Assembly: GCA_029259355.1 (NCBI GenBank)
Contig: JAPDIZ010000002.1
Location: 62,001 to 126,000 of the forward strand
Direction of reading: 5' to 3'
From: Candidatus Bathyarchaeota archaeon
Lineage (GTDB): Archaea; Thermoproteota; Bathyarchaeia; JAPDIZ01
DNA: 64,000 bases
Shown one piece after another: positions 45,522 through 50,056 of the stretch. Made by a program: the position numbers and the translations under genes. Position 1 is the stretch's first letter; each line of letters opens with the position of its first letter. Under the pieces are notes generated by a model. The model had not been told where the DNA came from. It saw nothing but the letters and a program-made list of their open reading frames with translations, and did not search any database.

Positions 45522-45950
45522 CTATCCTCTTGAGCGCCTACCCCTTCCCCGAGGACCTCGATAACCCCTCCCCGAGTAGCGCCTCGTCGAATAATCTACA
45601 GAATACTGCTTCTCAGATAGGTTATTTTCCCTATTGATGTCCTCTTCGGCGATCTCGGACTCCGACTGCTCGAGTGAGCCGAAGCGACCGACGTTTAGCC
45701 GCATAGAGCCTCTGAAAAGCGAGACAAATCCGTTCTTGACCTCGATAGTGTCTCCCACTGAGACTCTATCGATGTCTGCGTCCCAAAGCGTCATGTATAT
45801 CGTGCCAGTTTCGTCACCAACCAACACGTTGGAGACTCTGTGAATCGCACCATCTCGGCTCGAAACTACTTCGCGCTCATTCTCTTTTTCGAGGACTCTT
45901 GCGCGGACGTTGACGCCCTTGGAGTAGGGGGACAGCTCCTCTATCTTCAT
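45522..45950 (-). CDS. ssb: OB-fold single-stranded DNA-binding protein (RPA/SSB-like) with RG-rich tail
   Basis: KIEELSPYSKGVNVRARVLEKENEREV...VSNVLVGDETGTIYMTLWDADIDRVSVGDTIEVKNGFV; C-terminal GRGYRGPRGRGRRSRG. Confidence 0.85.
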   Translation of the reverse strand: MKIEELSPYSKGVNVRARVLEKENEREVVSSRDGAIHRVSNVLVGDETGTIYMTLWDADIDRVSVGDTIEVKNGFVSLFRGSMRLNVGRFGSLEQSESEIAEEDINRENNLSEKQYSVDYSTRRYSGRGYRGPRGRGRRSRG

Positions 45951-46082
45951 GTATCTCCTAGCTGAAGGAACCGACAACAGATTCACTCACACAGAGTTGA
46001 GATGTGTCCTAAAGGAACTCGGTAACTATTAAACCCTTTGGACGTTATGCCGAAGCTTTTTCCAACGCTACGAAGCGGATCG

Positions 46083-46631
46083 CTAGCTAGACTCTTCTCC
46101 AAAGAGAAGCCTTCTTCGCAGCAAGTCGAAGTCTATCTCTGCTTTAGACCTCCACCCAATAGCTAGGACGCCCTCCCCTTCCTTGACCAAGTAGCCCATC
46201 CTCACGAAGCGGTCGATCAAGCGGTCGATTCTCCAGTGAGGAAGCTTCTCCGCCAACAGTTCCTCGACTTCTCTCCTACCAGCTCTTCCTCCCCGCGCAA
46301 GCAGGTAGGCTACGCAAGCAGTTAAGGCGCCGAGGTCGTCGATTCTCCAGCCCAGCCTAACCAAGTCGGAGTAAGCTACTGGTTCGCGAGGAACAACCAA
46401 GAACCTCGCTCTATCCGGATCCTCCTCTCCCTCCTCTTCAAAAACAATCTTAATGGCTAAGCCCAAGGGCTCAAGCTCTTTGTCAAGGGCTTTCAAGACC
46501 TCTAAATAGCTTCTTCCCAAAGCCTTTCTCAGCTCCCAGCCCTTTGCCCCAGGAGTTCGGTGCCTCTGAATGAGGAGTAGCTGAGCAGCTCTCCTTATCT
46601 TTCGAACAAGCGCTGCGCTTTCTCCGCTCAC
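46083..46631 (-). CDS. Nse3/MAGE-like tandem winged-helix (KITE) candidate
   Basis: 182 aa; DDLGALTACVAYLLARGGRAGRREVEELL...RLIDRFVRMGYLVKEGEGVLAIGWRSKAEID resembles the MAGE homology domain; GTGA overlap with 46628..47389. Confidence 0.6.
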   Translation of the reverse strand: MSGESAALVRKIRRAAQLLLIQRHRTPGAKGWELRKALGRSYLEVLKALDKELEPLGLAIKIVFEEEGEEDPDRARFLVVPREPVAYSDLVRLGWRIDDLGALTACVAYLLARGGRAGRREVEELLAEKLPHWRIDRLIDRFVRMGYLVKEGEGVLAIGWRSKAEIDFDLLRRRLLFGEESS

Positions 46632-47389
46632 TCAACGAGCCTCCTTAAGGAAATGGCGACCGACCTCGGAGTAGTTTTTCGAGGGCGCTTGATCCTCAGC
46701 TCTCCACTGGGGTCTTGCTCGATGAACGCGCCTTCCCTAGTAGCTACAAAGCTCACTGCGAGAGCCCTGATTACGCTATCGGCGTAACTCTCTCGTTTGA
46801 CGAAGCTCCAGTACTCGATGTCCTCACCACTCTCCCACTTTCTCCTAAGCTCTTGGCCCACCTCCTCTATTGCCTTCTCCAGCTCTTCGCGGCCGAGCAA
46901 GCCCAGCTCATCTAGAGCCTCTAGCTCAGTAGGTAAGACTTCCTCAAACCTCCTGCCAAGCCTCCTAAGCCTCCTCGCTATGGGCGGGAGGCTTCTCCAG
47001 TACTCCACAGCAGCTTCCAGCGCTTCTCGAGTTAGCGGGTTCGAAGCAACCACAGGCCTCATCGAAGCGGCAAGAGCTTTTCCAAGGCTTTTGAGGGAGA
47101 GCCTAGCCACGATCTCCCTCGTAGTCTCTGGGGTTAGGTGCGTGGGAGATGCTTGCCTAGCTATGGCGTCTCCCTGCAGCCCCAAGACCTGAGTCGCTTG
47201 GTAGATTGCCTCAGCGTCAAGCGAGTGCTCTTGAGGGCTTTGGAGGCTTGGAAGCATCTCAGCTAGCTCATCCAAGCACTCGCCAACGTCAACTTCGAGG
47301 GGGTCGAGCTTCCCCCCGCTAGCGGTTTTGAGCAAGTTTATCAGCTTCTGGAGGCGCTCCTCCCTCGCTTTTCTTCCGCGCATGCTCAT
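46628..47389 (-). CDS. Nse4-like kleisin candidate
   Basis: 253 aa; C-terminal YWSFVKRESYADSVIRALAVSFVATREGAFIEQDPSGELRI resembles the Nse4 C-terminal domain; ATGA overlap with the smc gene. Confidence 0.6.
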   Translation of the reverse strand: MSMRGRKAREERLQKLINLLKTASGGKLDPLEVDVGECLDELAEMLPSLQSPQEHSLDAEAIYQATQVLGLQGDAIARQASPTHLTPETTREIVARLSLKSLGKALAASMRPVVASNPLTREALEAAVEYWRSLPPIARRLRRLGRRFEEVLPTELEALDELGLLGREELEKAIEEVGQELRRKWESGEDIEYWSFVKRESYADSVIRALAVSFVATREGAFIEQDPSGELRIKRPRKTTPRSVAISLRRLVE

Positions 47390-49302
47390 CGCTCCACATA
47401 CCTCGCCTCAGACAACCCACCGACGTTTTGGACAACGATGACGTGTACGCTTTCGTCAACGGATGGGACGTAGCCGGGGGTTATCACAACGTACTGCGCT
47501 CGCTGCTCACCTCCCAGCATGGAGATGATGGCTCGGTACATAGCCTCCCTGTTGGCAGGGTCCATGTGGACGTCGAACTCATCCACTGCCCTAAAGGGCG
47601 AGACTACCTTCTGCTGAAGCGCGAGCAGAAAAGCCATGGTCGCTACGCTTCTCTCTCCACCGCTCTGAGTATATGGGTCGAGAACTCTTGGCTCAGCTCC
47701 CCTAAACCCAACCGCTAGCTCTAGCCCAGCGGTTTCGAGGTCTTGCGGGTTGCTAAGCCCTAAAAAGCCTCGAGCGCCCACCAGAGCCAAGATCTCGTTA
47801 TATACAGGCTCCACTTCCCTCAAGACCTTGGTAACCTGCTCCTCCCAAACCTTGAATCTCTTCCTCACCTCAGCCAATGCCTTCTCCCGATCTTGCTCAA
47901 GCTTCTCAAGCTTTTCCCTAAGCAACTCCAACCGCTTCTTGTGCTCCTCGTATCCCTTCTCAACCTTCTCAGAAACCTCACCCATGAGCGCAAGCTGAGA
48001 GGAGACTAGCCTAAGCTCCTCCAAAACCTCTGAAACAGCCCTAACTTGGCTGGGCCTTCTCCCAAGCTCACCAGCTCTAGCCTTCGCTTCCCTAAGGTCG
48101 CGCAACCCCTGCTCGATCTCTCGGCGCAGCCTGTTGGCGTCAGCCTCCAAAAACTCCCTCCGAACCATCAGCGAAGCCTCATCAACCCTCGCCTCCATCA
48201 GAGAAGCCACCAGCTCGTCGGCTTGAGACTCCAATCCCTCAAGCTCCGCGCCAGCTCGAGAAAAACTAGCCTCAATCAACCTAGCTCTCTCCGCTGCTTC
48301 CTCAGCTCTCCTAGCGTATTCTTGAGCTAGGTCGCTTAGCTGAGGGTATGCGCTAATTCTCTTCGAAAACTCTTCGCATAAGGATGAGGATGCCCTCGCT
48401 TCAGCAAGCGCTGCTAGCATAGACTCATAGTCTAACCGCTTGGACCTGATGTCTGCCTTGACCCCCGACAGCTTCTGCTGAATACCCTCTACCTCAACTC
48501 GCCTCTGCTCAAGCCTATCGCCTATTTCCTCAAGCCTCCTCTCAATCCTCGAAAGCCTATCCCTAAGCGATTCCACGCTCTTCTCCAGCCTAGCAACCTG
48601 CGCCCAAGCGTGTTCCAGCTCCAAAGCCTTCTTCCTCTCCACCAGCTGCCTCCACCTAAGCAGCTTGTCGTACTCTCGCTCCCAGTACGCCAAGAGATCC
48701 TCTGCTCTAGCCACAGCCTCTCTAACCCTCTCCTCCTCTCCGAGGACTGCCTCAAGCCTCTTCTGAGCTGAGAGAACTTTTTCACGGTAGCCAGTTAAGC
48801 CAACGGCTTCCTCGAGCATCCTAAGCCTTTCCTGCGGAGAGGTTGCGGCGAAGGACTCCATCATGTGCTGGTGCATGATGATCAGCATGTTGTCTGGGTT
48901 TATGCCAAGCCTCCTCATCACCTCGAGCACGTAGGACTTTGGCTCTTCTCGGTGGTTGACCTCGAACCAGTAGCTTCCGTCTCTGCGTAGGTATCGCGAC
49001 ACGATGAGCTTGTCCTCTCCCCTAAGCTTGGGGATCCTTCTACCCACACCCTCGAAAATCACCGAAACCCTAGCGATATCCTTTCCATGCCTTATGAGGT
49101 CGCTGAGCCTCCTAGACCTCTCGGTGTAGGTTTGGCCCAGCGCTATGGCTATGCCGAGGAGTATGGAGGACTTGCCAGCGCCGTTTGGCCCGCATATCAG
49201 GTTTAGCCCACGCCTCAGCGGAATCCTCGCGTACTCGTAGGACATGAAGTTCTCTAGAACTACCTCGGTGATGGCTGGGGTTTGCGCCGCCTTCGCCGAC
49301 AA
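47386..49302 (-). CDS. Smc5/6-like SMC ATPase with short coiled coil
   Basis: GPNGAGKSSILLGIAIALGQTYTERSRRLSDLIRHG; LDPYTQSGGERSVATMAFLLALQQKVVSPFRAVDEFDVHMDPANREAMYRAI; ~430 aa coiled coil between, no CxxC hook. Confidence 0.88.
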   Translation of the reverse strand: MSAKAAQTPAITEVVLENFMSYEYARIPLRRGLNLICGPNGAGKSSILLGIAIALGQTYTERSRRLSDLIRHGKDIARVSVIFEGVGRRIPKLRGEDKLIVSRYLRRDGSYWFEVNHREEPKSYVLEVMRRLGINPDNMLIIMHQHMMESFAATSPQERLRMLEEAVGLTGYREKVLSAQKRLEAVLGEEERVREAVARAEDLLAYWEREYDKLLRWRQLVERKKALELEHAWAQVARLEKSVESLRDRLSRIERRLEEIGDRLEQRRVEVEGIQQKLSGVKADIRSKRLDYESMLAALAEARASSSLCEEFSKRISAYPQLSDLAQEYARRAEEAAERARLIEASFSRAGAELEGLESQADELVASLMEARVDEASLMVRREFLEADANRLRREIEQGLRDLREAKARAGELGRRPSQVRAVSEVLEELRLVSSQLALMGEVSEKVEKGYEEHKKRLELLREKLEKLEQDREKALAEVRKRFKVWEEQVTKVLREVEPVYNEILALVGARGFLGLSNPQDLETAGLELAVGFRGAEPRVLDPYTQSGGERSVATMAFLLALQQKVVSPFRAVDEFDVHMDPANREAMYRAIISMLGGEQRAQYVVITPGYVPSVDESVHVIVVQNVGGLSEARYVER

Positions 49303-49372: not shown

Positions 49373-50056
49373 TTGGTCTTGGCTGGGAAGGTATTCGTGG
49401 TCAGAGAGCACATGGAGCTCGCCACCATAGCCTCTAAGCTCAGAGACTACAGGAGGGAGGAGGTGTACGAAGAGGGCGACAAGACGCTTAAGCTGATCAC
49501 CGAGGTCGTGGGAATTGTTCCTCGAACAAACGCTATAAAAGCTGTTTTCAGCTACGACCAAGTGATCAGAGTTCCGCAGCGAGGAGAACTCGTCCCCATC
49601 GTAAGGACTTTTGAAGCTCCCTTCTGGTTTACGGAGTTTGGCGACAAGGTTTTGCTCACGGTTTTGGAGAAGAAGTTTAGGGCGAACTACATAGCTAACT
49701 CGCTGAGCGAGATACTCTTCATAGCGCCAGGCGCCATAGCTGAGGCGAGGATATCCCCAGAAACTCTCAGAGAGTTTCACGAGAAAAACCCGGAGAACAC
49801 TCGCGTAATCTTCTTCGACGACGTGGACATACCTAACGTCGAAAAGCTTTCGCTATACGGAGAAGAGCTTAGGAACACCTCGCTGTACAACGAGTACTTG
49901 AGCCGAGGAAAGATTTGGTACATAGTCTTCACCTCGCGCACGAGGGGATACGTGGTGGGCTTGACGAGAAACGCTGTCGTGGTGGTTTTCAGCGATGTAG
50001 ATGAGGAAGCCTTCTACGACTACGTCTACGAGGAGATCTTTCCCCTCATCGAGTAG
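49373..50056 (+). CDS. Hypothetical protein divergent from the SMC operon
   Basis: 227 aa complete ORF; no family recognised. Confidence 0.7.
   Translation: MVLAGKVFVVREHMELATIASKLRDYRREEVYEEGDKTLKLITEVVGIVPRTNAIKAVFSYDQVIRVPQRGELVPIVRTFEAPFWFTEFGDKVLLTVLEKKFRANYIANSLSEILFIAPGAIAEARISPETLREFHEKNPENTRVIFFDDVDIPNVEKLSLYGEELRNTSLYNEYLSRGKIWYIVFTSRTRGYVVGLTRNAVVVVFSDVDEEAFYDYVYEEIFPLIE

What the first reader, a model, noticed from the sequence alone, without database searches (positions are those of the whole stretch)
46083..49302. Candidate minimal archaeal Smc5/6-Nse3-Nse4 complex in one translationally coupled operon
Seen directly: three minus-strand genes joined by 4-nt overlaps (ATGA at 47386-47389, GTGA at 46628-46631), implying tight stoichiometry. 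The SMC head carries LDPYTQSGGERSVATMAFLLALQQKVVSPFRAVDEFDVHMDPANRE...YVVITPGYVP. From memory of eukaryotic Smc5 (LDPHxQSGGERSVSTMLYLIALQ...PFRVVDEINQGMDPxNER...FLITPKLLP), this is much closer to Smc5 than to canonical archaeal SMC or Rad50. The 253-aa partner ends YWSFVKRESYADSVIRALAVSFVATREGAFIEQDPSGELRI, resembling the Nse4 C-terminal kleisin domain (FVxxPxSFxQTVENLFYxSFLIRDG). The 182-aa partner resembles the Nse3/MAGE winged-helix module, including a WGPRAxAEI-like GWRSKAEI. Archaeal Smc5/6-related SMCs have been noted in the literature. A coupled kleisin plus KITE pair would make this a complete ancestral-type Smc5/6 core. The three-subunit assignment is inference.
Basis: partly seen in the sequence, partly recalled or inferred. 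Interest (0 to 1): 0.96.

Follow-up and report, generated by a model that had tools for sequence, protein, structure and literature searches.

The report
Hinge-less archaeal Smc5/6-type three-gene operon
Three overlapping genes in this archaeon encode a small relative of the eukaryotic Smc5/6 DNA-handling machine (a motor, its clasp and its clamp protein), the set is conserved across much of an archaeal phylum and recurs in a few Asgard archaea, and the motor strikingly lacks the hinge that normally joins such motors into a ring.

Summary
In detail: three minus-strand genes (638, 253, 182 aa) overlap by ATGA and GTGA. The reading holds with corrections. The SMC heads form a clade with eukaryotic Smc5 and Smc6 (99/98), apart from the genome's own canonical SMC and Rad50. 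The 253-aa family matches only Nse4 in the PDB; 36 of 37 members hit Pfam Nse4_C. The 182-aa protein folds as a tandem winged-helix KITE nearest Nse1, Nse3 and MAGE. The order smc-kleisin-kite stands in 56 of 58 loci that hold all three genes. Corrections: the SMC is equally close to Smc5 and Smc6; the KITE is not specifically Nse3; these SMCs (555-756 aa) lack hinge and zinc hook, so this is a minimal variant, not a demonstrated ancestral core. The genome also has a canonical smc-scpA-scpB operon. A hinge-bearing version occurs in 5 of 231 Asgard genomes, beside RING and E2 genes and, in three, E1 genes. Archaeal 'SMC5/6-related' SMCs were already published (2021, 2022); no paper I could read describes their kleisin and KITE partners or the missing hinge, but an unread 2024 preprint may. 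Physical assembly and function are untested.

The parts
47386..49302 (-). Smc5/6-type SMC ATPase, 638 aa, no hinge
   Evidence: Family profile: the top 10 PDB hits are all Smc5 or Smc6, E 4e-63 to 6e-51. Tree clade with Smc5/6 99/98. No SMC_hinge match.
49168..49191 (-). Walker A GPNGAGKS of the SMC N-head
   Evidence: Sequence; nearly all columns invariant in 40 homologues.
47833..48741 (-). region between the heads (residues 188-490): short coiled-coil arms without hinge or zinc hook
   Evidence: No central conserved block, no central globular stretch and no CxxC, no PF06470 match.
47653..47664 (-). ABC signature SGGE of the SMC C-head
   Evidence: Invariant in 40 homologues.
47557..47595 (-). 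Walker B region FRAVDEFDVHMDP, Smc5/6-type
   Evidence: Compare PFRVVDEINQGMDP in SMC5, PFRCLDEFDVYMD in SMC6 and PFYIFDEIDAHLD in the own canonical SMC.
46628..47389 (-). Nse4-like kleisin, 253 aa
   Evidence: Family profile hits only Nse4/EID3 in the PDB, E 1.4e-5; Nse4_C in 36 of 37 members; AF2 pLDDT 80.4.
47150..47383 (-). kleisin N-terminal helical domain, predicted SMC neck binder
   Evidence: Three confident helices 3-24, 35-48, 52-80 in the model; role inferred from kleisin anatomy.
46685..46897 (-). kleisin C-terminal winged helix, predicted SMC cap binder
   Evidence: Foldseek to ScpA C-WHD bound to an Smc head, 4i99_C/D, TM 0.72-0.74, rmsd 2.5 A, and Nse4 7qcd_F and 8t8f_G.
46083..46631 (-). 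KITE tandem winged-helix protein, 182 aa
   Evidence: AF2 pLDDT 89.7; Foldseek top hits Nse1-Nse3-Nse4, MAGE-G1/NSE1 and MAGE-A3, then MukE, JetB and ScpB. Single copy in the genome.

Best explanation
The operon encodes a second, dedicated SMC complex beside the cell's canonical Smc-ScpA-ScpB: an archaeal Smc5/6-type SMC-kleisin-KITE machine. Shown by sequence and predicted fold: a complete split ABC ATPase head of the Smc5/6 clade; an Nse4-like kleisin with an N-terminal helical domain and a C-terminal winged helix; a tandem winged-helix KITE; and close gene coupling conserved across a phylum. Inferred: two identical SMCs pair through ATP-dependent head engagement; one kleisin bridges the neck of one SMC and the cap of the other; a KITE homodimer sits on the kleisin and holds duplex DNA on top of the engaged heads, as Nse1/Nse3 do in Smc5/6 and MukE in MukBEF. 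Because the arms are short (roughly 80-150 residues each) and the hinge is missing, it probably works mainly as an ATP-gated DNA clamp, or with dimerisation by arm tips or kleisin/KITE, rather than as a large hinged ring. The likely role is genome maintenance (joint-molecule or replication-fork repair), distinct from bulk chromosome organisation by Smc-ScpAB.
For: SMC placement: (the own canonical SMC hits no Smc5/6 chain at 1e-20). Kleisin. KITE. Order conserved in 56 of 58 loci. Separate canonical smc-scpA-scpB operon in the same genome; canonical SMC in 12 of 14 genomes searched that carry this operon's SMC or KITE. No hinge. Mostly single copy and broad distribution (SMC in 205 of 257 class genomes; KITE in 159 of 400 phylum genomes) fit a housekeeping role. 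A convergent Lhr-type helicase gene lies near the operon in 18 of 65 loci. Clamp geometry of KITE complexes: PMC10512200.
Against: No interaction, ATPase, DNA-binding or genetic data. KITE homology rests on predicted fold, not sequence. The kleisin middle is low confidence (pTM 0.37). SMC complexes as defined dimerise through a hinge (PMC10586767), which this one lacks, so ring formation and loop extrusion cannot be assumed. The repair role is by analogy plus a neighbourhood hint.
Confidence: 0.85

Rival explanations
1. A defence complex: the SMC-kleisin-KITE set senses and silences plasmid or viral DNA, as Wadjet/JetABC or human Smc5/6 do.
For: KITE and kleisin architecture is shared with JetABC (8dk1_E among the fold hits); the SMC hits PADLOC SMC-like models weakly; human Smc5/6 restricts episomes (PMC10586767).
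Against: No JetD-like nuclease or other effector in the operon; kleisin and KITE hit no PADLOC model; presence in most genomes of the class with a fixed gene order is unlike the patchy spread of defence islands.
Confidence: 0.12
2. A non-loop-extruding RecN- or Rad50-like repair ATPase: without a hinge the SMC acts as a head-only DNA tether, and the partners merely regulate it.
For: No hinge and short arms; RecN and Rad50 also lack an SMC hinge domain (own knowledge).
Against: The heads belong to the Smc5/6 clade and not to Rad50; no zinc hook; RecN and Rad50 do not use a kleisin plus KITE, which here are co-encoded almost everywhere.
Confidence: 0.2
3. An alternative chromosome condensin that duplicates the canonical Smc-ScpAB role.
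For: Two of the 14 genomes searched, both with the KITE, gave no canonical SMC match at 1e-30 (G275, G441), so it might substitute there.
Against: In the window genome and in 12 of 14 searched genomes a canonical SMC coexists, here with its own ScpA and ScpB.
Confidence: 0.15

Closest known systems
Eukaryotic Smc5/6-Nse4-Nse1/Nse3 complex
   Same: SMC heads form one clade; Nse4_C-type kleisin; KITE fold nearest to Nse1/Nse3.
   Different: One SMC gene (presumed homodimer), one KITE, no hinge, arms far shorter, and no Nse2, Nse5 or Nse6 in the operon.
Archaeal 'SMC5/6-related' SMC (Yoshinaga and Inagaki 2021; Yoshinaga et al. 2022, PMC9389158)
   Same: An archaeal SMC in the Smc5/6 sub-clade beside a canonical SMC; very probably the same SMC family, although their sequences could not be compared here.
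   Different: PMC9389158 treats the SMC gene alone; partner subunits, operon and hinge loss are not mentioned in it. The 2021 paper itself is not held.
Canonical Smc-ScpA-ScpB
   Same: SMC, kleisin and KITE as a three-gene set; a separate copy lies elsewhere in this genome.
   Different: 1163-aa SMC with hinge (PF06470, E 1e-18), different SMC clade, ScpA- and ScpB-type partners. PMC7055376 found archaeal ScpA proteins unable to bind ScpB.
Wadjet JetABCD / MksBEF / MukBEF
   Same: KITE-based SMC complex; JetB and MukE appear among the KITE fold hits.
   Different: No JetD, different kleisin family, and heads of the Smc5/6 clade.
Archaea-specific SMC-related proteins (coalescin, Sph)
   Same: Short archaeal SMC-like proteins.
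   Different: Most ASRPs carry a zinc hook (PMC9389158); none here, and the ASRP model scores far below its cut-off (58 against 300 bits).

Membership tests
Smc5/6 clade of SMC ATPases | Heads group with Smc5 and Smc6, apart from canonical SMC and Rad50 | tested here: met
   99/98 and 98/93 with Asgard members; profile hits in the PDB; paralogue control.
Smc5/6 clade of SMC ATPases | Walker A, signature and Walker B motifs intact | tested here: met
   GPNGAGKS, SGGER, FRAVDEFDVHMDP; conserved columns.
SMC proteins in general | Central hinge dimerisation domain | tested here: not met
   No PF06470 match in the members scanned, while the own canonical SMC (E 1e-18) and the Asgard member (E 1e-13) hit; composition and conservation controls.
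Nse4 (delta) kleisin | Nse4_C domain / C-terminal winged helix | tested here: met
   Nse4_C in 36 of 37 members, only Nse4 in the PDB, fold. The window copy alone does not hit Nse4_C.
Nse4 (delta) kleisin | N-terminal helical domain that binds the SMC neck | tested here: inconclusive
   Confident three-helix N domain, but no significant sequence match and no complex model.
KITE (Nse1/Nse3/ScpB/MukE) | Tandem winged-helix fold | tested here: met
   AF2 model and Foldseek.
Nse3/MAGE specifically | Specific similarity to MAGE over Nse1 and other KITEs | tested here: inconclusive
   Nse1-like and Nse3-like chains score about equally; Pfam MAGE and SMC_Nse1 matches are insignificant. The LxWRxxAEhD motif resembles the MAGE WGPRAxAE, from memory.
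Eukaryotic Smc5/6 complex | Two different SMCs and two different KITEs, one with a RING, plus Nse2 | tested here: not met
   One SMC of this type and one KITE in the genome; no RING in the KITE. Nse2 and Nse5/6 were not searched for genome-wide.
SMC-kleisin-KITE complex | Physical assembly of the three proteins | not testable with these tools
   Only single-chain structure prediction was available; the operon is the only linkage evidence.

The most novel reading that the evidence does not exclude
The Thermoproteota operon is a working SMC-kleisin-KITE complex that dispenses with the hinge, so a hinge-closed ring is not essential to the Smc5/6 machine; and its hinge-bearing Asgard relative, encoded beside ubiquitin-like, E1, E2 and RING genes, means that the link between Smc5/6 and ubiquitin-type ligases predates eukaryotes.
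Probability: 0.3. Interest if true: 0.93.

Novelty: new variant of a known kind. Interest (0 to 1): 0.78.

Why it matters
The origin of eukaryotic Smc5/6 and its Nse partners is an open question. A coupled three-gene archaeal set with an Nse4-type kleisin and an Nse1/Nse3-type KITE gives a small, probably homomeric system on which the mechanism can be tested, including in thermophiles. The missing hinge would directly test whether SMC function needs a hinge-closed ring. It also qualifies the view that archaeal Smc complexes generally lack a KITE (PMC7055376), which was drawn from the canonical complex only.

Tried and rejected
Rad50/SbcC affinity: rejected by tree and profile scores. ASRP/coalescin membership: rejected (no zinc hook, score far below cut-off). 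Wadjet: no JetD, no PADLOC hit for kleisin or KITE. ScpA/ScpB identity of the partners: rejected, because true ScpA and ScpB lie next to the canonical SMC elsewhere in the genome. Single-sequence Pfam searches of the window kleisin and KITE gave nothing useful; family alignments were needed. Sequence search of the KITE profile against the PDB gave one insignificant hit (E 0.13). Conserved downstream SSB: the OB-fold gene at 45522-45986 is not a recurring neighbour. Whether eukaryotic Smc5 plus Smc6 are one clade, or closest to Asgard or Thermoproteota members, is unresolved (AU p 0.41, 0.15, 0.16). The 2021 Yoshinaga and Inagaki paper and the 2024 van Hooff et al. preprint (doi 10.1101/2024.01.07.573240) were not readable.

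Full report
Observation. The third gene has a good ribosome-binding site, AAGGAGG, 8 nt before its GTG.

Taxonomic setting. No named record was given for the window. Relatives with names are mostly Bathyarchaeota, with Methanomethylicota/Verstraetearchaeota, Candidatus Methanodesulfokora and Thermofilales further out, so the window is most probably from a deep Bathyarchaeia-like lineage of Thermoproteota (inference); its order holds no other genome in the set searched.

SMC. Alone, the SMC already hits yeast Smc5 best in the PDB. With 40 homologues as a profile, the ten best PDB sequences are all Smc5 or Smc6 (E 4e-63 to 6e-51), ahead of canonical SMC (7e-48), and Smc6 and Smc5 score equally. 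The control is clean: the canonical 1163-aa SMC of the same genome hits 45 PDB sequences at 1e-20, none of them Smc5 or Smc6. A head-only tree puts 21 operon SMCs with human and yeast Smc5 and Smc6 at 99/98, canonical SMCs at 100/99 and Rad50/SbcC apart. It does not resolve how Smc5 and Smc6 relate to the archaeal group. Only four eukaryotic head sequences were available, taken from PDB alignments.

No hinge. Lengths run from 555 to 756 aa against about 1160-1210 for canonical SMC. None of the members scanned lists SMC_hinge, while the own canonical SMC (E 1e-18), a Loki SMC (9e-8) and the Asgard relatives (1e-13 and 1e-11) do. One search shows only the 25 commonest of 39 families, so the direct test rests on the individual scans. 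Conservation falls to 0.31-0.35 in the middle of the operon SMCs, where canonical SMCs show a rise at the hinge. The most globular-like 60 residues lie at the hinge in all four hinge-bearing controls but towards the head ends in most operon SMCs, with no G/P/aromatic-rich centre in any. No CxxC hook is conserved.

Kleisin. The window protein alone hits no relevant family. Its family does: 36 of 37 members match Pfam Nse4_C at E up to 1, best E 5e-6, and the profile finds four PDB sequences in all, every one an Nse4 or the Nse4 homologue EID3 (E 1.4e-5 to 9e-5). The structure model (pLDDT 80.4, pTM 0.37) shows a confident N-terminal three-helix domain and a C-terminal winged helix; Foldseek gives Nse4 first and ScpA, Scc1 and other kleisin C-terminal domains at TM about 0.7, though the E-values are weak because only the short domain aligns.

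KITE. Sequence searches are insignificant, but the model is good (pLDDT 89.7), and its fold hits in order are Nse1-Nse3-Nse4 chains, MAGE-G1/NSE1, MAGE-A3, then MukE, JetB and ScpB among others. So it is a KITE, nearest to the Nse1/Nse3 type, without evidence for Nse3 in particular.

Conservation. SMC homologues at 1e-30 occur in 205 of 257 genomes of the class, a count that may include some canonical SMCs at the weak end; KITE homologues occur in 159 of 400 genomes of the phylum. All three genes lie in the same order and strand, close together, in 56 of 58 loci that hold all three; the two others keep the order with an insertion. The named relatives that carry the set are Bathyarchaeota, Methanomethylicota, Methanodesulfokora and Thermofilales. 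Loci were chosen by the SMC or the KITE, so the order itself was not selected for. Incomplete loci are mostly contig ends; two (L063, L064) have the SMC without neighbours.

Context. The genome has a full canonical smc-scpA-scpB operon, and canonical SMC is present in 12 of 14 genomes searched. Recurring neighbours are an uncharacterised 227-aa protein, divergent and usually just upstream, in 21 of 65 loci, and an Lhr-type helicase, convergent, in 18.

Asgard relatives. A KITE search of 149 genomes of the Lokiarchaeota phylum found two weak matches that proved to be the third gene of the same three-gene set; a search with that SMC found 5 of 231 genomes. Profile comparison supports homology: kleisin 95.5% probability, E 1.6e-8; KITE 97.6%, E 4.8e-12. 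This version has a hinge, an AAA ATPase gene overlapping upstream, and nearby RING and E2-RING genes; in three genomes (L192, L193, L195) E1-like and E2 genes follow, with a ubiquitin-like gene in L193 and L195 (Pfam run on the L193 copies, the others by sequence likeness). The L192 locus shows SMC and kleisin but no KITE call.

Mechanism. From the parts, the best model is an SMC homodimer bridged asymmetrically by the kleisin, with a KITE homodimer that clamps DNA on ATP-engaged heads, as in other KITE complexes (PMC10512200). Missing hinge and short arms make a hinge-closed large ring unlikely unless the arm tips or kleisin/KITE dimerise the complex. Everything about assembly and function is inference.

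Known or new. Archaeal SMC5/6-related SMCs are published (PMC9389158). A 2023 review lists KITE complexes of prokaryotes as Smc-ScpAB, MukBEF and MksBEF/Wadjet only. No held paper that I found describes Nse4- or KITE-type partners in archaea for this SMC. The preprint of van Hooff et al. 2024 (cited in PMC11592926) may do so; I put that at about one in two, and the interest score allows for it.

Noticed in passing
L193 4935-14166 (also L192, L194/L195, L184, L185): In a few Asgard genomes (5 of 231) a hinge-bearing Smc5/6-type smc-kleisin-KITE operon adjoins RING and E2-RING genes, and in three genomes E1-like and E2 genes, with ubiquitin-like genes in two of them; also an AAA ATPase and an M48-like+RING protein.
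   Followed up: partly
49373-50056 (+): Uncharacterised 227-aa protein with no Pfam match, divergently transcribed just upstream of the SMC; homologues near the operon in 21 of 65 loci.
   Followed up: partly
L121 1309-4206 and 17 other loci: An Lhr-type helicase (about 950 aa) often lies near the KITE gene, mostly directly downstream and convergent, a hint at a repair link.
   Followed up: partly
45522-45986 (-): An Ssb-like OB-fold protein (PF21473, E 3e-17) lies directly downstream of the KITE gene on the same strand in the window only; not a recurring neighbour.
   Followed up: partly
L063, L064 (G057, G053): The SMC stands alone, without kleisin and KITE beside it, in two related genomes; whether the partners lie elsewhere was not checked.
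   Followed up: no
L120 / L153: In Methanomethylicota WYZ-LMO10 the SMC is split into 119-aa and 458-aa frames, perhaps a frameshift or sequencing error.
   Followed up: no
L087 2073-4076 (own genome C4): A 667-aa Rad50-like protein with unusual Walker A GRNSVGKS and signature VGGGH instead of SGGE.
   Followed up: no
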